A stretch of DNA of 64,000 nt, taken from Phytoactinopolyspora halotolerans. GTDB taxonomy: Bacteria > Actinomycetota > Actinomycetes > Jiangellales > Jiangellaceae. Both the position numbers and the translations under genes were made by a program. The stretch spans positions 62,001 to 126,000 of the forward strand of contig NZ_JAAGOA010000007.1 of assembly GCF_010550675.1 (NCBI RefSeq), read 5' to 3'. Within the stretch, counting starts at the first letter, position 1, and the number at the start of each line of letters is the position of its first letter. The notes below the pieces were generated by a model. The model was given only the letters and a program-made list of their open reading frames with translations, searched no databases and was not told where the DNA came from. Below, piece by piece: positions 13,196 to 21,496 of this stretch.

Positions 13196-14368
13196 TCACA
13201 GCGTGTCGAGCATGCGACGGATGGCCGAGTAAGAGATGCGCTCCTGCTCCAGGCGAACCGCCGGCCCGAACGCGTCCTCCACGAGGTCCCGGTACAGGTC
13301 TGCCTCGTCGGGTCGCAGGCCGTCCAGGTGCGCGACGTAAGGGCTGTCTTCTTTGACCCACTGGCCCTCGTGAGCCAGCAGCGTGGCCCGGTCCATCAGC
13401 ATGGACCGGGCCCGCGGAAAATGCCGGCGGAGCCGGTCGAGGATGGCGAAGCCGTGGGTGTCGATGTCGCCCCAGTAGATCAGGTCGCGCTCCGCGAGCC
13501 AGGTGAGGTGTTCGAGGCTGGACACCCCATAGCCGCCGCCGAAGATGGCCACGGCATCCTCGACGGGAGGGAAGGCCAGGTACGTGACGTCGTTCTCGAT
13601 CACATACACCACGGAGCACTCCGGCGGGCGCTCGACCAGCTCCTCCAGGCGCACCGAGAGCTCGCTGAATCCACCCGCCAGCCGCACGTCAGGGTCCAAG
13701 GCGCGCAGACGGACGTAGACCGGGCGGTCGCGGAAGCCGTACCGGGCGACGAAGTCGGACCTCGTACGCGAGTGATCGATGCGCTGCTCGTCCAGCTGGA
13801 GGTCGAGCAACTCGGCGACGACGCCACGGTGCCGCTCGATGAACTTGGTGTCCGCGCCGGACACGTCGACCTGCCTGAGGTACGGGCGGCCCGCGCCGTA
13901 CTGGTCGACCCACAGCACGACATCGACGATCGTCCACCACTCGGCAGCCAGATCGAGGACGCGCAGCGGCCGCTTGAGCATCCAGGCGACCAGCTTCGGC
14001 GCACGGGTCCTGGTCTCGTCCAGGAGCTCGACGAACCGCGCCGCCTCTCGCCGCACACCCAGGGCCGACCACAGCTGCTCGTAGGTGTCGACCCACACCC
14101 TCGCCGGCAGCTCGTTCGCGCCGACCGTCCGGCCGCCGACGCGCTTGTATTCCAGCCGCCCCAGCCGGCCCGCCGCACGTTCCCAGGACTGGACCCATGA
14201 CCGGACCCTCTCCAGGTCGGACGCCACATCTCGAGAACCCGGCCCACGCAGCGGAACGGTGAGCGGCTCCCACGCGACACCGCCACCGAGCGCCGCCAGC
14301 GCCGCGCCCGAGTCCCACCGTCGCCGGAGTCTCCGTTCGACGTCGGCCGGGGTGGTCCACTCGGTCAC
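13196..14368 (-). CDS. jetD: Wadjet nuclease subunit JetD (DUF3322/DUF2220)
   Basis: JetD, 390 residues, last gene of the type I Wadjet operon; JetD cleaves plasmid DNA after loop extrusion by JetABC. The C-terminal Toprim-like domain shows the conserved Glu258 in VYVIENDVTYLAFP and the D-x-D pair at 301-303 in YWGDIDTHGFAIL, so the catalytic site looks intact. The N-terminal half matches DUF3322 (LEYKRVGGRTVGANELP). The GTG at 14368 overlaps the jetC stop, so it is translated by coupling. It ends 45 bp from the convergent corA stop. Confidence 0.92.
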   Translation of the reverse strand: MTEWTTPADVERRLRRRWDSGAALAALGGGVAWEPLTVPLRGPGSRDVASDLERVRSWVQSWERAAGRLGRLEYKRVGGRTVGANELPARVWVDTYEQLWSALGVRREAARFVELLDETRTRAPKLVAWMLKRPLRVLDLAAEWWTIVDVVLWVDQYGAGRPYLRQVDVSGADTKFIERHRGVVAELLDLQLDEQRIDHSRTRSDFVARYGFRDRPVYVRLRALDPDVRLAGGFSELSVRLEELVERPPECSVVYVIENDVTYLAFPPVEDAVAIFGGGYGVSSLEHLTWLAERDLIYWGDIDTHGFAILDRLRRHFPRARSMLMDRATLLAHEGQWVKEDSPYVAHLDGLRPDEADLYRDLVEDAFGPAVRLEQERISYSAIRRMLDTL

Positions 14369-17300
14369 GCCGTCTCCTCGCTGCGCAGCAACTCGTGGGC
14401 GATCCGTCGTTCCTGGTATTCCTCGATGGACATGCTCTGCAGGCGCGAGTAGTTGCCTTCCTTGGTGTTGTCCACGTATCCGACGCTGTAGACGTACGGC
14501 TCGATCACATGGATCTTCTGCAGGGGTGTGACGATCAGCAACTGAAGCCCCAAGCGGCGGAAGAGCTCGAGAGCGTACCTGGTGGACTCGTCGGAACCGC
14601 GGCCGAACGCCTCGTCGATCACCACGAACCGGAAGGCCTTGGAGCGCACCGCACCCCACTCGAGCTTGAACTGATACGCCAGCGACGCCGCCAGGATCGT
14701 GTACGCCAGTTTCTCTTTCTGCCCGCCCGATTTGCCGCCGGAGTCGGTGTACGTCTCATGCTCGGAATCGTCCTCCCGCCACCGCTCGGACGCGGAGAAG
14801 AGGAACCAGTTGCGGACGTCGGTGACGCGCCTGGCCCAGGTTCGGTCCGCCTCGGTCTGGCCCTCCCTGCCCTGGAAACGCTCGATGATCCGCTTCACCT
14901 GCACGAACTTCTGTTCGGAGTACTGCTCCGAGGCGTCGCCGGAGACCGTGCTCGCGGTGCAGGCCCGCAGCTCCTCCCGGAACTCCCGGATGTCGGTGTT
15001 CGGCGTCCAGTGGTGCTCGAGACGGATGTAGCGGCCCGGGTTGTAGTCCACGCCGACCAGCGAGTCGTTGATCGTGTGGACCCGCTCCTTGATGAGCTCG
15101 ACCTGCTTGTACAGCTGGCCCTGGAAGCTGGCGATGTCGCGGATGGTGTTGGTGTTCAGATAGTCCTTGAACTGCGCTTCGAACCGCGGCAGGTCGTCGT
15201 CGACCAGGCGGCGGTGCATCTCCCGGTACTCGCCGGCGGCCTGGATAGAGTTGTCCACCTCCGCCGTCTCCAACGGATACCGCTGGCGGAAGTCGGCCAT
15301 CTTCTGAACGACGCGGTTCCCGACCGTGCTCTGTCTCTTGCCGCGCGCGTCGATCAGGGACGTCAGTGTGCTCGTCGTCTCGGACAGGACGCGATCGTAA
15401 TCGGAGGCACGGGCCATCGTGGATTCGTCCACCCGTCCGGCCAGCCGGTCGAAGAACTCCGTCGCGGCCTCGTACCCCGGCTCCTCGAATCTCCGCCGGG
15501 TCCGCTCCAGCTCGTCCTCGTCGTTTCGCAGGCTGGTCTCCAGGCCACCGATCTCCGAGACCAGGGTGTCCCGCGCCTCCTTGGCCTTCGCCATGGCACG
15601 CTCGACAGCCTCGATCTCTCGTCCGAGCCGTTCCAGTTCGCTGGACGCCGCCTCCAGCCGCTGCTTCTCCTCGGTGAGGTCGGCGACGCGCTTGACCATC
15701 GCCTGCCAGTCCACGTCCACGTACTCGCGGGTCTCGGCGAGTCTGACCAGGACGTCGCGACGACGCCGAGTCTCGTCGGCCTTCTGGGTGAGCCTGCGGC
15801 GCTCGGCGTCCAACTCGTTCATCTGCCGTTGAACCTTCGCCGCCCGCTCCAGCAGCGTGTCGATCTTCTGTTCGTTGCTCCAGCCGAGCACGTACTCGCT
15901 GCGGTCGTCGATGCGGCGGCGGTCGTCCTTCTCGTGCCGGCCGCCGGTCCCCTTGATCTGGCCGGTCTTCGTCACCGCGCGGTGCGCCCGGCGGAACTCC
16001 TCCATCGTCTCGACGCACTCGTAGCCGGCCCGGCGCGCAAGCTCCTGCTCCAGCCAGGGATAGAACTCCGAGTCCTTGATCTCCAGCTTGGACACGAGCT
16101 GCCGTTCCGTGCTACCCGCGTCGGCCGCCGGTCGCGGTGCGACCTTCGTCGGCACCCGGTAATAGACCAGGCGGGCTCCGAGATGGTGGTCGTTGATCCA
16201 ACCGGCCACGTCCGGATAGTGCTCATCCGGAACCAGCAAAGACAGGCCGAAGGAGCGCAGCAACCGTTCGGCCGCGCCCTCCCATTCGGACCACTCTGGC
16301 CGCACCTGGATCAGCTCACCGGCGAACGGCAGCTGAGCCTCGTCGACACCGATCTCCCGGCTCAACCACGCCCGCAGCTCCAGACTCCGCGTAGGGATGT
16401 TGCTCCGCCGGGAGCGCAGGCTGCGCAGCTCCGTGTTGAGCTCGTCGGCGTCGTCCTTGAGCGCCTTCTGGTCGACGGCCACCTCCATCAGCCGGTTCTC
16501 GAGTCCGGCATCCGAGCTTTCGGTCCGTGCCAACTCCTCGTCGACCTCGCGTCGCCGAGCCTGGAACTGCTCGGCGCGCTCGATCTCGTCCAGACCCGCC
16601 TGGCGCAGCTGCTCGTTGAACCGGTCCCACTTGGCGCGCCGCTCGTCCCGGACCCGCTCGGCGTCGTCGATGTCGCGCTCGATCTGGCCCAGTCGGTCGC
16701 CGCCGTGCCCGGCTCGCTCGATGACGAGGGCCTGGTGCTTCTCCTCGAGTGCACGTATTTCGTCGTCCGTGCCGGCACGATCGTCGCGTCGAGCGGCGAT
16801 CCGCTCGGTCAGCTCGTCAATGCGCCGTTCCAGCAGGCGCGCCTTACGCCCCGCGCAGAAGTACGGCAGCGCGGCCCGCTCTCCATCGAGTCCGCGGATC
16901 TCCTCGGCCAGGGCGTCGTACGTGTCACAGTCCGCCAGCAGCGGGTTGAGCTCCTCGAGCTGGGCACGCGCCTTGACCACGGCGTCGTGGGCTTTGGTCA
17001 GATCCTCGAAGTGCGCTACCAGGCGGGCGATCCACTCCTTGGCGTCGAACGGCTCGAGCATGTGACTGCGGACGAAGTCGTTCAGGTCTCCCACCGACTT
17101 CATCGAGACCGTCTGGTGGAACAGCTCCATGGCCTGCTCGGACTCGATGCCCAACCGCCGACGGAAATCCTTGCCGTACTCCGGGAAGTGATCGTAGACG
17201 CGGATCCCGTTCGTGCCCCGCAGACGCCTGCGCAGCGCGGCGATGTCGCTGCCGAAGTCGGAGAAGTCCGTGGCGATCGACAGCGGCGCGTCGGCGGTGA

Positions 17301-17769
17301 CGAAGAACCGGTCGGGCTGGCCGGCGTTGCCGTCCTTCATCCAGAACACCTGAGCCAGCGAGACGGTGGAGTCGTAGCCCTCGTTCCGGAAGATGCCGAG
17401 GATCACCGAGAACGACGACGCGTCGCGCAGCCCCACCGGGCGGGACGTGCCGGTCGTCTCGTTCCGCTCGGACTTGTAGTAGCCCATGACGTAGGAGCGA
17501 AGGCTGCGCTCCTTGACCTCGGCGCCGGCCGCCTTGTTATAGGAGATGCGGTTCGCCGGCAGGAGCAGTGTGGTGACAGCGTCGACCAGCGTGGACTTGC
17601 CGGAACCGATGTCACCGGTGAGCAGACCGTTGTCGCCGTGGACGTCGAGCGTCCACACGCGGCCGTGGAACGTGCCCCAGTTGTAGAGCTCTAGCCGGTC
17701 GAGTCGGAATCCCGCGCGCTGGCCGGCGACCGCCTCCTCCAGCTCGACCGCGCTGAACAGGCCGTCCAT
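14365..17769 (-). CDS. jetC: Wadjet SMC-like ATPase JetC
   Basis: MukB/SbcC-like SMC protein of 1134 residues, motor of the Wadjet complex. Walker A GDIGSGKST is at 52-60 after RLELYNWGTFHG. A long coiled coil fills the middle, with a hinge-like globular region near 440-560. The signature SGGKSGGQKEK is near 1009-1020 and Walker B FVVIDEAFGRGSDEST near 1048. All ATPase elements are intact. The ATG at 17769 overlaps the jetB stop; the longer upstream open frame lies over jetB and is ignored. It works with JetA (kleisin-like) and JetB (KITE-like). Confidence 0.95.
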   Translation of the reverse strand: MDGLFSAVELEEAVAGQRAGFRLDRLELYNWGTFHGRVWTLDVHGDNGLLTGDIGSGKSTLVDAVTTLLLPANRISYNKAAGAEVKERSLRSYVMGYYKSERNETTGTSRPVGLRDASSFSVILGIFRNEGYDSTVSLAQVFWMKDGNAGQPDRFFVTADAPLSIATDFSDFGSDIAALRRRLRGTNGIRVYDHFPEYGKDFRRRLGIESEQAMELFHQTVSMKSVGDLNDFVRSHMLEPFDAKEWIARLVAHFEDLTKAHDAVVKARAQLEELNPLLADCDTYDALAEEIRGLDGERAALPYFCAGRKARLLERRIDELTERIAARRDDRAGTDDEIRALEEKHQALVIERAGHGGDRLGQIERDIDDAERVRDERRAKWDRFNEQLRQAGLDEIERAEQFQARRREVDEELARTESSDAGLENRLMEVAVDQKALKDDADELNTELRSLRSRRSNIPTRSLELRAWLSREIGVDEAQLPFAGELIQVRPEWSEWEGAAERLLRSFGLSLLVPDEHYPDVAGWINDHHLGARLVYYRVPTKVAPRPAADAGSTERQLVSKLEIKDSEFYPWLEQELARRAGYECVETMEEFRRAHRAVTKTGQIKGTGGRHEKDDRRRIDDRSEYVLGWSNEQKIDTLLERAAKVQRQMNELDAERRRLTQKADETRRRRDVLVRLAETREYVDVDWQAMVKRVADLTEEKQRLEAASSELERLGREIEAVERAMAKAKEARDTLVSEIGGLETSLRNDEDELERTRRRFEEPGYEAATEFFDRLAGRVDESTMARASDYDRVLSETTSTLTSLIDARGKRQSTVGNRVVQKMADFRQRYPLETAEVDNSIQAAGEYREMHRRLVDDDLPRFEAQFKDYLNTNTIRDIASFQGQLYKQVELIKERVHTINDSLVGVDYNPGRYIRLEHHWTPNTDIREFREELRACTASTVSGDASEQYSEQKFVQVKRIIERFQGREGQTEADRTWARRVTDVRNWFLFSASERWREDDSEHETYTDSGGKSGGQKEKLAYTILAASLAYQFKLEWGAVRSKAFRFVVIDEAFGRGSDESTRYALELFRRLGLQLLIVTPLQKIHVIEPYVYSVGYVDNTKEGNYSRLQSMSIEEYQERRIAHELLRSEETA

Positions 17770-18425
17770 CAGCTTCCCTCGTCTCGGTCCGTGTCGCGAT
17801 CGTCCGCATCGTGCTGACCCGCGTCGTCTCCGCGTAGCTGGGCCGCGTACTCCGCCAGCCGCTGGTCGAAGTCGGCCAGCCATTGCCCGTCGACGAAGGC
17901 CTTGAGGATGCGGCGCACCTCGAAATGTCCGTCCTGGCCCTTGATACGGCGCAGGAAGCCCAGCTCCACCACCTTGGAGATGTGCGTGTCGATCTGGTCC
18001 ACCAGACGCGCCTCGTTGCGGCCCTCGGGCAGGAACACCCGCACCATGTCGATGATCTGCTCGCGCGTGAGCACCAGCTTGGTGTCGCCGCCCTTGGCGT
18101 CGAACTCGGTCAGCTTCTTCCGTAGCAGCGCTAGCAACAGGCTGACGTGGAACGACAGTGCCCGGCGAGGGATCAGCCGCGGAATGCTGGGGCCTTCGTC
18201 GTCCTCCAGGTCCGGTCTGGAGCGGAGAAACGCGTACCCCTCCGCCTCGTCGACGACGACGGTCAGCCCGATCGTGGAGACGTAGTCGCGCACCCGCGAC
18301 TGCAGCTGGAGCAGATGGCGCCACTGAGCCTCGTGCGTGTCCCGGTACACTACGCCCTTCATCAGCTGGGTGACGACCAGCGACAGGTTCGGCTCCTCGT
18401 CACGGGTGATGGTGGCCGTCGTCAT
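17769..18425 (-). CDS. jetB: Wadjet subunit JetB (DUF4194)
   Basis: JetB, 218 residues, DUF4194 family. It is the MukE/KITE-like winged-helix partner linking JetA to JetC. Recognisable segments are LMKGVVYRDTHEAQWRHLL, YVSTIGLTVVVDEAEGYAFLR and a late winged-helix region with LRRIKGQDGHFEVRRILKAF. The tail is rich in Asp. Both ends overlap neighbouring genes by ATGA junctions, so stoichiometric coupled translation is likely. Confidence 0.92.
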   Translation of the reverse strand: MTTATITRDEEPNLSLVVTQLMKGVVYRDTHEAQWRHLLQLQSRVRDYVSTIGLTVVVDEAEGYAFLRSRPDLEDDEGPSIPRLIPRRALSFHVSLLLALLRKKLTEFDAKGGDTKLVLTREQIIDMVRVFLPEGRNEARLVDQIDTHISKVVELGFLRRIKGQDGHFEVRRILKAFVDGQWLADFDQRLAEYAAQLRGDDAGQHDADDRDTDRDEGS

Positions 18426-19876
18426 GTCGCCTCCCCTTCTCCCGGTCCGGTCCGTACGAACGTGACGCGTGGCAGCGTCGCGACCCGCTCTCGGCCGTCC
18501 GCGTCGCGCCAGTTCACCCGCTCGCGGCTGGTCTCGTCGAAGACGACGCCGAAAGAGTCGTCGGTCAGCGACAGGTAGCCGACAAGCTCCGCAAGCCCGT
18601 GCTCGAGCGGGTGCTCTCCCACCAGCTCGGGCAGGCCGACCTGGCTGCGCTGTTGCAACGCCCGCCGGACGTCGACGGCCAGCCGAGCACGATCGATGTA
18701 TACCTGATCGAAGAGGACCGACGAGTCGACCTCCTCGTCTCCGCTCTCGACGCTGCTGTCGATCGGCGTCTTCGCCGACGGCGTGTACAGCGGCCGTTCC
18801 ATGGGCAGGACGATCGCGGGGACCGTGCCGTCGATCTCGAAGGTCATCGGCGGCGCTCCGTGGTCGCGGAGATCCAGCGCCGTGGCCTCGATGCTGCGCA
18901 GCAGGTCCATCACACGCCGGTTCTCCAGCCAGGCCTGATCGTCTAGGAACCGTCGCAGCTGATCGGAGAGGAGCCGAACAGTGTCCTGGGTGCGTTCGCA
19001 GGCGTCCAGCCAATCGAAGTGGATGCGCCGCATGCGCGGGTCCTTCTCGTCTATCGCGTCCAGCTGCTGAACCCGGTCGAGGAGGCCCTTGAGCTCGTCC
19101 TGCTTGTCCGGCGAGAGCAGGAAGTCGTAAAACGCCTGGAAACTTGTGCCCTGGTCGGAGTCGGCGATCGCGTCACGGTCGCCGAGCACCTCGTCGAGCA
19201 GCTCTCCCTTCGATCCGCTCCACGCGGCCACCTTCTCGCGCAGCTGCCGGTCGAGTATCCGGAAGTTCGCCTCGACCTCACGGAAGTCGGACAGCAGATC
19301 GCGGGCCATGCTGGAGAACTGCTGGTAGCGGTCGCGTTGGCTCGCGGCGTCGAGAACGTCGACGTTGCCCCGCTCGGCCTCGGCGATCTCCACGTCGAGC
19401 TCATGCCGGCGGCGACGCAGCTCCTCGAGCCGTACTTCCGGGTCGCCTTCAGCGCCGTACACCATCTGCCGCAGCAGCTCGAAGATCGTGTTGAGGCGGG
19501 ACTCGGTGCCGACGAAGGAGCGAGCCTGCAACGACCGCACCCACGAGATCGCCTTCTCCACCGCCGGTGTGGCATCGAAATGAGGCTCGTCGGAACCCGC
19601 CGGGTAGTACTTTCGAAGCCACCCCGCCTCGGGCGCGGACCAGTCATCGAGGTAGGCCTTGGCGGTCTTGGGAAACGTCCCTTCGCCCAGCCGCTCGTTC
19701 AGCGCGTACAACTCGTCGTCGAGCAGGCTGACCAACTCGGTGCTGGTGATGGTACGGACGTTGTCCTCAACGAAGATCCGATGCAGGAAGCTCAGGATGA
19801 GCGGCGCGTTGTCTGCGCGCAACAGCCTCCACGCAGGGCTGTGCTTGCGTAACGCGTCGACGTCCTCGAACTGCAT
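18422..19876 (-). CDS. jetA: Wadjet subunit JetA (DUF3375)
   Basis: JetA, 484 residues, DUF3375, the kleisin (MukF)-like subunit and first gene of the operon. The N-terminus (SPAWRLLRADNAPLILSFLHRIF, then IFELLRQMVYGAEGDPEVRLEELRRRR) matches the family. A central coiled coil follows, and the C-terminal winged-helix region contains LVGEHPLEHGLAELVGYL. The ATG at 19876 is preceded by GGAAAG. The 222 bp upstream are shared with the divergent DUF234 gene and probably hold the operon promoter (possible -10 TAGCAT) and an imperfect dyad at 19963-19982. Confidence 0.93.
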   Translation of the reverse strand: MQFEDVDALRKHSPAWRLLRADNAPLILSFLHRIFVEDNVRTITSTELVSLLDDELYALNERLGEGTFPKTAKAYLDDWSAPEAGWLRKYYPAGSDEPHFDATPAVEKAISWVRSLQARSFVGTESRLNTIFELLRQMVYGAEGDPEVRLEELRRRRHELDVEIAEAERGNVDVLDAASQRDRYQQFSSMARDLLSDFREVEANFRILDRQLREKVAAWSGSKGELLDEVLGDRDAIADSDQGTSFQAFYDFLLSPDKQDELKGLLDRVQQLDAIDEKDPRMRRIHFDWLDACERTQDTVRLLSDQLRRFLDDQAWLENRRVMDLLRSIEATALDLRDHGAPPMTFEIDGTVPAIVLPMERPLYTPSAKTPIDSSVESGDEEVDSSVLFDQVYIDRARLAVDVRRALQQRSQVGLPELVGEHPLEHGLAELVGYLSLTDDSFGVVFDETSRERVNWRDADGRERVATLPRVTFVRTGPGEGEAT

Positions 19877-20046
19877 TTCTTTCCCGACGGCTCATCACTC
19901 CGGGGCGGGCGCTGCGGGCTCCTCAGCCCATGGTCTCCACGCCGTATGCTACGGGCAACTACCGACACATCGATGGATCGGTGGGAGAACGTCCCCCGAT
20001 TCGGCTCCTGCGGATTCGCAGCTGGTACGGCGGCGTAGGTAGCATA

Positions 20047-20079
20047 GGACGTCACTGACGTAGCGCGTCAGTGACGTCC
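20047..20079. promoter_or_regulatory. perfect 14-bp inverted repeat upstream of DUF234 gene
   Basis: GGACGTCACTGACG (20047-20060) and CGTCAGTGACGTCC (20066-20079) are exact reverse complements separated by 5 bp. The second arm ends 19 bp before the DUF234 ATG. The dyad could be an operator, or an RNA hairpin close to the ribosome binding site; no T-run supports a terminator. The function is inferred; the symmetry is plain in the sequence. Confidence 0.6.
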
Positions 20080-20098
20080 CTTGCAAGGGTGGTACGCC

Positions 20099-21496
20099 AT
20101 GGATTTCGTCAATCGGGTAGATGAGCTGGCCCAGCTGCAAGAGTGGTGGGAGACGCCAGAGGTTCGGCCCGCCCTCATCTGGGGACGACGCCGCGTGGGG
20201 AAGACCGCGCTAATCGCGGAGTTTGCAGCCCGTACAAGAGCACGAACCGTCTTCCACATCGCCGGCACCAGGTCGGCAACTGCCGAGCTGGTCGCGCTGT
20301 CTCAGAGGGCAACCGCCGTAACGAGTCGCGGTCGACGGAGCCCCTCGGACCGGCCCTACGAAAGCTGGGACGATGCTCTGGATCACTTGGCTGAACAAGC
20401 CGCTGATGAACCTGTCCTGCTCGTACTGGATGAGTTTCCAGAACTCATCCAGTCCTCGCCGGAGTTGCCCGGTGTCTTGCGCGCATTCCTCGATCATCCC
20501 GTAGGGACAGGCCGACTCCGGATCCTCATATGTGGCTCGGCCGTACGGACCATGCTAGCCATGCAGGAGTACCGAGCACCGCTCTACGGCAGGTTCGATC
20601 TGGTCATGCAGGTGCACCCGTTCCGGCCGCATGAAGCCGCTCAGCTGCTTCCCAATCTGTCCCCGGCTGACCGCGCCTTCGTCTATGGGGTACTGGGCGG
20701 AACGCCGCTCTACTTGAGCTGGTGGCGGCAGGACGTCTCGATCCAGAAGAATCTGCTACGGCTAGCCTGCCGCCCTGGGGCCCGCCTACTTGCCGAAGGC
20801 GAGCTGGTACTGGCAACCGAAGTCGATCCCGGAGATTATCCGGCCGCGGTATTAGAGGCCATCGCCACCGGCAAGACTCGTCACCATGAGATCGCCGACG
20901 CTGTCGGAGCCGAACCAAGCCGCACGCTCCGACGACTGCGCCAACTGCGGCTAGTGGAACAGCTACTCCCGGTGACCGAGTCCGAGCGGCGGACGCGGCG
21001 CAAGATCTACCAGATCAGCGACCCGTTTCTTGCCTTCTTCCTTGGTCCCCTGCAGCGCTACCGCACCGAGATCGAACAGGGTCTCGGTGAACGCATCGTC
21101 GATGCTTTGATCGATTCACTCAGCGAGCATATGGGCCGCATCTATGAAGAGGCGTTCCGAAACCACTTGCGCAGGCTCGCTGCCGCAGGCGACCTCGGGC
21201 GACGCGTTGTCGCGGTTGGCCCATGGTGGAGCGAGGGTGGCCAGGATCAGATTGACGCGGTCGTCCTCAGCGAGCCAGACCGCACTCGTGTACCGGTTCT
21301 GGTAGGAGAGTCGAAATGGTCCCGCAAGGTCGATGCGCGACGACTCCGAGCCAAACTCACGGCCAAAGCCAGCAAGCTCACAGACGATGTCGACACACTC
21401 ACTTACGCGATCTGCGCACGAGACGAGGTCACCAACGCCGACGAGGGCGTACTTACGGTGACCGCCGCTGATATCTACGGTTTGGCGGAGAACTAG
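20099..21496 (+). CDS. AAA ATPase with DUF234 (PD-(D/E)XK-like) C-terminal domain
   Basis: 465 residues. It opens with FVNRVDELAQLQEWW and a Walker A GRRRVGKTALI (about 29-39). Walker B LLVLDEFPELIQ and sensor ICGSAVRTM follow. A winged-helix segment lies near 265-300. The C-terminal DUF234 part has IDAVVLSEPDRT then VLVGESKW, the D...E-x-K order of PD-(D/E)XK nuclease-like folds. This family is common in archaea and scattered in bacteria, often in mobile or defence neighbourhoods; its role is poorly known. The ATG at 20099 fits the family start (MDFVxRxxE). Divergent from jetA across 222 bp. Confidence 0.85.
   Translation: MDFVNRVDELAQLQEWWETPEVRPALIWGRRRVGKTALIAEFAARTRARTVFHIAGTRSATAELVALSQRATAVTSRGRRSPSDRPYESWDDALDHLAEQAADEPVLLVLDEFPELIQSSPELPGVLRAFLDHPVGTGRLRILICGSAVRTMLAMQEYRAPLYGRFDLVMQVHPFRPHEAAQLLPNLSPADRAFVYGVLGGTPLYLSWWRQDVSIQKNLLRLACRPGARLLAEGELVLATEVDPGDYPAAVLEAIATGKTRHHEIADAVGAEPSRTLRRLRQLRLVEQLLPVTESERRTRRKIYQISDPFLAFFLGPLQRYRTEIEQGLGERIVDALIDSLSEHMGRIYEEAFRNHLRRLAAAGDLGRRVVAVGPWWSEGGQDQIDAVVLSEPDRTRVPVLVGESKWSRKVDARRLRAKLTAKASKLTDDVDTLTYAICARDEVTNADEGVLTVTAADIYGLAEN

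What the first reader, a model, noticed from the sequence alone, without database searches (positions are those of the whole stretch)
19877..21496. DUF234 ATPase/nuclease-like gene divergent from Wadjet, with a perfect 14-bp dyad
An ATPase with an IDAVV...GESKW nuclease-like core shares a 222-bp control region with jetA. A perfect dyad (20047-20079) precedes it, and an imperfect dyad with a CATCGATG core is at 19963-19982. This may be an unrecorded accessory or second defence gene controlled together with Wadjet.
Basis: partly seen in the sequence, partly recalled or inferred. Interest (0 to 1): 0.6.

Follow-up and report, generated by a model that had tools for sequence, protein, structure and literature searches.

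The report
Self-controlled ATPase-nuclease gene beside Wadjet
The gene beside the Wadjet plasmid-defence operon is a one-gene ATPase-nuclease of unknown function, and the mirror-image DNA before it is most likely its own control site: relatives in bacteria and archaea carry similar evenly spaced sites whose letters vary together with the protein's DNA-reading helix, while the link to Wadjet looks accidental.

Summary
In detail: an ATPase_2-DUF234 gene (20099-21496, +), 222 bp from jetA of a complete type I Wadjet operon, and a perfect 14-bp dyad (20047-20079; 0 of 500 shuffles). The Wadjet interpretation fails: none of 60 orthologous loci has jet genes in the flank fetched, and none of the 19 other jetA genomes (of 393) has this gene in the stretch fetched beside jetA.

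The dyad belongs to the ATPase gene. It is two 9-bp units 16 bp apart. Paired GTN5AC units occur in 36 of 56 orthologue upstreams against 37 of 8072 control tiles, nearly only in the last 110 bp. Other DUF234 genes have different words at 15-16-bp pitch. The orthologues' half-site letters covary best with residues 256-285, the predicted HTH (simulated-phylogeny P 0.0025).

Best reading: a STAND/ORC-like AAA+ ATPase with winged helix and PD-(D/E)XK domain (PADLOC candidate PDC-S27) that binds its own operator and probably represses itself. DUF4143 genes of this order have 23-bp-pitch arrays. I found no report of such arrays in ten searches.

The parts
20099..21496 (+). ATPase_2 (AAA+) - winged helix - DUF234 (PD-(D/E)XK) protein, 465 aa; PADLOC PDC-S27
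   Evidence: AF2 model pLDDT 94.2, pTM 0.90
20816..21016 (+). winged-helix region, residues 240-306; helices 247-256, 262-269 and probable recognition helix 274-282; strands 286-289 and 303-306
   Evidence: my reading of the model's secondary structure; covariation with operator half-sites peaks at residues 256-285
21035..21493 (+). PD-(D/E)XK nuclease-like domain, residues 313-465, with D386, E404, K406
   Evidence: domain model pLDDT 91.5, weak best matches to restriction and repair endonucleases
20047..20079 (.). proposed operator: perfect 14-bp dyad, 5-nt loop
20051..20059 (.). operator unit 1, GTCACTGAC
20067..20075 (.). operator unit 2, GTCAGTGAC, 16 bp from unit 1
20040..20045 (+). possible -10 element TAGCAT of the ATPase gene, just before the dyad
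   Evidence: by eye; inference, not tested
19946..19951 (-). possible -10 element TAGCAT of jetA
   Evidence: by eye; inference, not tested
19961..19982 (.). imperfect palindrome, 9 of 11 pairs; unit spacing does not fit the operator pattern
   Evidence: chance not excluded (20 of 500 shuffles)
13196..19876 (-). Wadjet type I operon jetA-jetB-jetC-jetD, an unrelated neighbour

Best explanation
The gene is a stand-alone member of the ATPase_2-DUF234 family: an ORC/STAND-like AAA+ ATPase with a DNA-reading winged helix and a PD-(D/E)XK nuclease domain. The dyad before it is its own operator, a two-unit version of the arrays of 9-bp near-palindromes at 15-16-bp pitch found before its relatives. 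Shown by computation: the arrays, their position just before the gene, their pitch, their near absence elsewhere around the gene, and the covariation of their letters with the HTH. Inferred: the protein binds the array through its winged helix as dimers or a higher oligomer, with successive 15-16-bp units on roughly opposite faces of the DNA, and so represses its own gene. Not shown: what releases the protein, what its nuclease cuts, and whether it defends against phages or plasmids. The Wadjet operon is a chance neighbour.
For: (1) Paired GTN5AC units at the set pitch: 36 of 56 orthologue upstreams against 37 of 8072 control tiles. By position: 35 of 54 in -110..0, 0 of 53 in each of the next three tiles, 1 of 155 downstream, 1 of 616 inside genes. 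(2) Direct 8-mer repeats (1 mismatch allowed) at lag 16 in 29 of 56 (shuffle mean 2.8) and lag 32 in 14 of 56 (0.8). In 38 other ATPase_2/DUF234 upstreams with different sequences, lag 15 in 21 of 38 (0.8) and lag 45 in 5 (0.5). Other genes of the same loci: lag 15 in 12 of 181, lag 16 in 8 of 181. Later set from viral contigs: lag 15 in 7 of 10 examined, of which two are duplicates and others alike. (3) Covariation: operator distance versus protein distance, partial r highest at residues 256-285 (0.358), the predicted HTH. Partial r for the wHTH given the rest 0.27 (label permutation p 0.001), for the rest given the wHTH 0.025. On a tree built without the wHTH region, 400 simulated traits give P 0.0025 for that window and 0.012 for the best of all windows. 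GTAG as commonest half-site goes with Phe262 in 7 of 7. (4) By eye each of the seven own-genome paralogues examined has a different dyad or repeat. (5) TANNNT ends 5-10 nt before the start codon in 41 of 56 against 9 of 192 control genes, so most arrays would lie over or upstream of the -10 of leaderless genes.
Against: No binding or expression data. The GTN5AC pattern was defined on the same 56 upstreams that it was counted in, so (1) is not an independent test; (2) on other genes is. 12 of 56 orthologues do not pass the self-similarity test, and 36 of 183 control upstreams pass a similar one. 20 of 56 have no strict unit pair. Control genes were called mechanically from the first start codon, so the -10 and upstream controls are rough; control upstreams also repeat at lag 30 in 21 of 181 and lag 32 in 11, so the lag-30 echo is weak evidence. 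Covariation is modest, with secondary peaks at residues 31-60 (0.257) and 226-260 (about 0.30). Six of the seven Phe262/GTAG cases come from related Streptosporangiales-type actinomycetes, one from Glycomyces (names). Phe262 also occurs once with GTAA, and Asp/Glu278 with both GTA and GTC sites. The null is a simple Brownian model with a scale I chose. Paralogues are singly weak: 4 of 7 at 3 or fewer of 60 shuffles, one of these (L007) in a region picked by eye. The window gene lacks the -10 at the usual place, so its dyad may lie in the transcribed leader.
Confidence: 0.72

Rival explanations
1. Accessory or second defence gene functionally coupled to Wadjet and controlled with it through the shared 222-bp region.
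For: Head-to-head arrangement with a 222-bp gap; PADLOC PDC-S27 match; an imperfect palindrome lies near the possible jetA promoter.
Against: 0 of 60 orthologous loci with a jet match in the flank fetched; 0 of 19 other jetA genomes with the gene in the stretch fetched beside jetA; 1 of 5 genomes with both genes has them linked; no counterpart of the dyad seen by eye upstream of the closest jetA relatives.
Confidence: 0.07
2. The arrays are real operators but bound by another, unlinked regulator.
For: Only DNA evidence exists; other HTH regulators lie beside some copies (IclR-type neighbours in 5 of 104).
Against: Array letters differ between orthologues and between paralogues of one genome, while pitch is kept and letters track the gene's own HTH. 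No Pfam family recurs in more than 5 of 104 neighbours.
Confidence: 0.13
3. The arrays are sites where the AAA+ protein does more than regulate: an origin-like, iteron-like or self-cleavage platform, or the end of a mobile element.
For: Fold related to Cdc6/Orc1 (2qby Z 15.3), whose genes are recalled to lie next to their own recognition boxes; nuclease residues conserved.
Against: Arrays only on the promoter side: 1 of 155 downstream tiles has a pair. The window's own operator has no second copy in its genome.
Confidence: 0.13
4. The inverted repeats act as RNA hairpins (attenuator or terminator).
For: In the window a 14-bp perfect hairpin would form in a transcript starting after TAGCAT 20040-20045 (inference).
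Against: In most orthologues the array lies over or before the -10 of probably leaderless genes; several relatives use direct repeats.
Confidence: 0.05

Closest known systems
PDC-S27 (PADLOC candidate single-gene defence; ATPase fused to PD-(D/E)XK)
   Same: Match E 1e-31 over residues 2-389. PMC12988326 (passages read) describes the architecture and says that most PDCs lack experimental validation.
   Different: The passages I read mention no operator arrays. PADLOC gives only a protein model.
PDC-S01 / AAA_14-DUF4143 ATPases
   Same: Related architecture (PMC12988326 passage); in genomes of the window's order also preceded by gene-specific repeats. I link DUF4143 genes to PDC-S01 from recall; they were not scanned with PADLOC.
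   Different: Direct repeats at 23-bp pitch in 20 of 25; in clostridia mostly another geometry, lag 23 in 2 of 24.
Archaeal ATPases PABY2304 (2qen) and SSO1545 (2fna)
   Same: Closest solved folds over residues 1-319: Z 23.6 and 21.4.
   Different: Listed as Walker-type ATPase and conserved hypothetical protein; the aligned part ends about where the nuclease domain begins.
Archaeal Orc1/Cdc6 with origin recognition boxes
   Same: AAA+ plus winged helix (2qby Z 15.3, 295 residues, rmsd 6.8); recognition boxes beside the gene (recalled).
   Different: No nuclease domain in Orc1/Cdc6 (recalled); here the arrays vary with each gene copy and sit over its promoter.
STAND regulators such as IniR and MalT
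   Same: ATPase related to SSO1545; IniR binds the iniBAC promoter (PMC5760070, passages read).
   Different: IniR has a MalT-like domain and acts on another operon; here a nuclease domain and apparent self-control.
Wadjet type I (JetABCD)
   Same: Adjacent in the window.
   Different: The ATPase matches no Jet model and was not found linked elsewhere.

Membership tests
ATPase_2-DUF234 / PDC-S27 | PF01637 and PF03008 above curated cut-offs in one protein | tested here: met
   74.5 bits (cut-off 33.2) and 52.9 bits (cut-off 22.5); PDC-S27 E 1e-31
ATPase_2-DUF234 / PDC-S27 | intact Walker A, Walker B and PD-(D/E)XK residues | tested here: met
   G34, K35, T36, D111, E112 in 53 of 53; D386 52, E404 51, K406 49 of 53
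ATPase_2-DUF234 / PDC-S27 | anti-phage or anti-plasmid activity | not testable with these tools
   PMC12988326 passages state that most PDCs lack validation
STAND NTPases | AAA+ core with C-terminal winged helix, N-terminal hhGRExE-like and GxP motifs (motifs recalled) | tested here: met
   by inspection: FVNRxxEL with R6 invariant; G200, G201, P203 invariant in 53 sequences; fold matches include plant NLR RPP1 Z 16.1 and CED-4 Z 14.7
Orc1/Cdc6 initiators | AAA+ plus winged helix of the Orc1/Cdc6 type | tested here: inconclusive
   Z 15.3 (2qby, 1w5t), below 2qen and 2fna
Orc1/Cdc6 initiators | binds and fires a replication origin | not testable with these tools
   no origin or helicase-loading test possible
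PD-(D/E)XK nucleases | restriction-endonuclease-like fold in the C-terminal domain | tested here: inconclusive
   domain model alone: best Z 8.2 and 8.1, many of the rows restriction or repair endonucleases; no Foldseek match at E <= 0.001; the motif residues support it
Wadjet type I | ATPase gene matches a Jet protein model | tested here: not met
   no Jet model among its PADLOC matches at E <= 0.001
Wadjet type I | conserved linkage of the ATPase gene to jetABCD | tested here: not met
   0 of 60 orthologous loci; 0 of 19 other jetA genomes, in the stretches fetched

The most novel reading that the evidence does not exclude
Single-gene AAA+-winged-helix-nuclease proteins (DUF234, and with another geometry DUF4143) form a two-part system: the protein plus a private, gene-specific operator array of fixed pitch. 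Array and recognition helix evolve together, so that many paralogues coexist in one genome without cross-talk. The array would be the docking platform that both silences the gene and holds the ATPase-nuclease in check until an invader frees it.
Probability: 0.25. Interest if true: 0.85.

Novelty: new variant of a known kind. Interest (0 to 1): 0.62.

Why it matters
PDC-S27 and PDC-S01 are reported as abundant candidate defence genes, more so in archaea (PMC12988326, passages read); I saw no target or trigger reported for them. A gene-specific DNA site that can be read off the genome gives an immediate biochemical handle: binding, repression, oligomer pitch, nuclease activation on or off the site. 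It also shows that the adjacency to Wadjet, which looked telling, is not.

Tried and rejected
Wadjet linkage: tested both ways and rejected. Defence-island reading: 104 immediate neighbours of the orthologues were scanned (105 were called; one very long protein, L067 4454-8698, was left out when I built the alignment; 4 of 60 loci gave no target gene call). 55 PADLOC models matched at E <= 1e-8, many of the 25 shown being models of one family (PD-T4-6) with one member each, and no model matched more than 4 members; Pfam gave no family in more than 5 of 104. No matched control was run, so I claim only that no partner recurs. Mobile-element ends: rejected because pairs lie on one side only. Phage decoy sites: the window operator pattern has one exact match in viral contigs, inside overlapping reading frames and about what chance gives by a rough estimate of mine that no call computed; a GTAAGTTAC-type pair has none. 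DUF4143 genes, taken as a negative control, turned out to have arrays of their own. Reading the 19961-19982 palindrome as a second operator: spacing does not fit and chance is not excluded. Origin function as in Orc1/Cdc6 could not be tested.

Rows dropped before counts: one search returned 80 loci, the cap of that tool, found through two peptide patterns, so the orthologue set is a sample; L018-L077 (60, 50-75% identity) were taken as orthologues, the more distant L078-L097 not. 6 of the 60 had no usable start region (L051, L065, L069, L072, L074, L076), leaving 54 plus the window and L015 = 56. In one search, 7 of 29 further DUF234 loci were left out because the start could not be called or the locus was partial (L101, L107, L114, L115, L128, L129, L132); by eye L107, L115 and L129 do carry repeats. 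Of the 22 counted, L125 and L126 belong to the orthologue group (L126 repeats L068); without them 17 of 20 pass. In the lag test, 8 of the 29 were left out (L101, L107, L114, L115, L125, L126, L128, L132), and 6 paralogues, 8 plasmid copies and 3 archaeal copies were added = 38; paralogue L007 and archaeal L095 were not in it. Covariation used the 46 of 53 sequences with at least two half-sites. Some orthologues are close relatives, and five haloarchaeal copies share one operator. Of 13 viral loci, 10 were examined. Of 30 DUF4143 loci of the order, 25 were used: L195, L201, L202 and L208 were not given and L203 gave no frame; of 30 clostridial ones, 24 were used. Of 19 new loci, 16 were looked at with L011, and 9 of these repeat loci already counted; none was added to a count.

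Literature: 10 searches of the open-licence library gave no listing that pointed to operator arrays before ATPase_2-DUF234 or DUF4143 genes; subscription papers and preprints were not covered, and listed papers were not opened except as follows. Papers seen as passages: PMC12988326, PMC13356809, PMC5760070; all others only as search listings.

Full report
What is there. The window carries a complete type I Wadjet operon on the minus strand (jetA 18422-19876, then jetB, jetC, jetD down to 13196). Head to head with it, across 222 bp, is a plus-strand gene at 20099-21496 (465 aa) with an ATPase_2 domain and a DUF234 domain. PADLOC matches it to the candidate defence family PDC-S27. A perfect dyad, GGACGTCACTGACG-TAGCG-CGTCAGTGACGTCC, occupies 20047-20079. 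Shuffled versions of the gap never contain such a dyad (0 of 500), though 3 of 533 tiles of the window hold an arm of 14 or more (loops up to 29). The inner 25 bp has no second match in the genome within three mismatches.

Is it tied to Wadjet? No. In the order (22 genomes) four other genomes have an orthologue, and none has a jet match in the 19.9 kb fetched around it. None has a JetA, B, C or D match in the fetched flank; flanks vary, and 31 of the 60 loci have 20 kb or more. The same queries find jet genes down to 44% JetA identity, so the test can see them. Conversely, 20 of 393 genomes of the class have jetA. Apart from the window's own, none shows a DUF234 match in the stretch fetched. 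For 16 of the other 19 genomes that stretch reaches about 1.5 kb beyond the start of jetA, for three only about 0.3, 0.4 and 1.1 kb; four were extended to 5-11 kb beyond it. Five genomes have both genes at E <= 1e-60, and only the window's has them together.

What the dyad is. Upstream regions of orthologues contain rows of a 9-bp near-palindrome, GT-NNNNN-AC, at a pitch of 15-16 bp. The window's dyad is two of them, GTCACTGAC (20051-20059) and GTCAGTGAC (20067-20075). Pairs at the set pitch occur in 36 of 56 upstream regions but in 37 of 8072 control tiles; the pattern was defined on these same regions, so this is a description rather than an independent test. Pairs keep to the last 110 bp before the gene: 35 of 54 there, 0 of 53 in each of the next three tiles, 1 of 155 downstream, 1 of 616 inside the genes. 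A test of self-similarity that assumes no motif gives 44 of 56 orthologues at 3 or fewer of 60 shuffles, against 36 of 183 control upstreams at 2 or fewer of 40 (Mann-Whitney p 2.6e-16).

It is a property of the family. Among 22 other DUF234 genes (clostridia and actinobacteria) 19 pass the self-similarity test, or 17 of 20 without two that belong to the orthologue group. Their words are mostly unlike the window's, for instance CAAATTACGATTTGACAAATTATGATTTGACAAATCGTAATTTG before L120. By eye, haloarchaeal and Rhodothermus plasmid copies and other archaeal copies show repeats too. In 38 such upstreams the commonest repeat lag is 15 bp (21 of 38; shuffles 0.8), with echoes at 30 (7) and 45 (5). 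In the 56 orthologues it is 16 (29; shuffles 2.8), with echoes at 32 (14) and 48 (5). Other genes of the same loci give lag 15 in 12 and lag 16 in 8 of 181, but lag 30 in 21, so the echo at 30 counts for little. Viral-contig copies give lag 15 in 7 of 10 examined, several of them alike. The own-genome paralogues at 27-33% identity each have, by eye, a different dyad or repeat, up to a 20-bp perfect dyad at L007; singly only 4 of 7 pass the test.

Who reads it. The half-site letters differ between orthologues (GTCA, GTCG, GTAA, GTAG, GTTA). I compared differences between operators with differences between proteins, window by window. The highest partial correlation is at residues 256-285 (0.358). 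A separate structure prediction (pLDDT 94.2) has helices at 262-269 and 274-282 followed by two strands, which I read as the HTH and wing. The wHTH predicts the operator given the rest of the protein (0.27), not the reverse (0.025). With trait evolution simulated on a tree made without this region, P is 0.0025 for this window and 0.012 for the best of all windows. All seven operators in which GTAG is commonest go with Phe at residue 262, though six of the seven come from related genera. Secondary peaks at 31-60 and 226-260 and exceptions at residue 278 are noted. This is good evidence, short of a binding assay, that each protein reads its own array.

How it would act. The protein's first 320 residues resemble archaeal ATPases 2qen (Z 23.6) and 2fna (Z 21.4), then NLR-type STAND proteins and ORC/Cdc6 (Z about 15-16). 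The C-terminal domain alone resembles restriction and repair nucleases weakly (Z up to 8.2) and keeps D386, E404 and K406. In 41 of 56 orthologues a TANNNT -10 ends 5-10 nt, mostly 6 nt, before the start codon (9 of 192 mechanically called control genes). The transcript is therefore probably leaderless, and the array sits over or upstream of the promoter, a position that fits self-repression (inference). In the window the nearest such box, TAGCAT 20040-20045, precedes the dyad instead (by eye). The jetA side has a similar box at 19951-19946; the 19961-19982 palindrome beside it is not clearly an operator. What activates the ATPase or the nuclease is unknown.

A sister family. As intended negative control I took AAA_14-DUF4143 genes, which I recall as the kind behind PDC-S01. 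In 25 upstream regions from ten genomes of the order, direct repeats at exactly 23 bp occur in 20 (shuffles 1.0) and at 46 bp in 15 (0.5); in other genes of the orthologue loci these lags occur in 6 and 8 of 181. In clostridia lag 23 occurs in 2 of 24, though 14 of 24 are self-similar in other ways. Private arrays may therefore be a wider habit of single-gene AAA+-nuclease proteins, with geometry set by subfamily and lineage.

Novelty. The protein is a new member of a known, uncharacterised kind. The array and its covariation with the recognition helix are, as far as ten searches of the open-licence library show, undescribed. The Wadjet connection that prompted the finding does not hold up. 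Interest lies in the family rule, not in the locus.

Noticed in passing
L185-L214 (DUF4143 genes of the same order; L195, L201-L203 and L208 not used): AAA_14-DUF4143 genes are preceded by direct repeats at exactly 23-bp pitch in 20 of 25 regions; clostridial members mostly show other geometry.
   Followed up: partly
L158, L159, L160, L161, L164 (haloarchaeal plasmids), last 40 bp or so before the gene: Five DUF234-type genes on plasmids of five haloarchaeal genera share one operator-like stretch (GTCATTATCG.AGTAATCATTA) next to the start codon, while the rest of the upstream DNA looks unrelated by eye.
   Followed up: no
L179, L180, L181: A 44-45%-identical subfamily has the same geometry with another word, for example TAGCCTGCGATGGTCG repeated at exactly 16 bp before L181.
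   Followed up: no
L222 and L243 (clostridial DUF4143 genes): Two copies of a 24-27-bp word with a palindromic core (GCGGATGCCGC) stand 77 bp apart before the gene.
   Followed up: no
G178 contig 339 (L156, L157): A jetA relative is split into two adjacent frames, so that Wadjet copy is probably broken or carries a sequencing error.
   Followed up: no
G000 contig 7, 4816-5142 and 145533-145697: Partial relatives of the ATPase gene in the same genome, one with an internal stop, possibly decayed copies.
   Followed up: no
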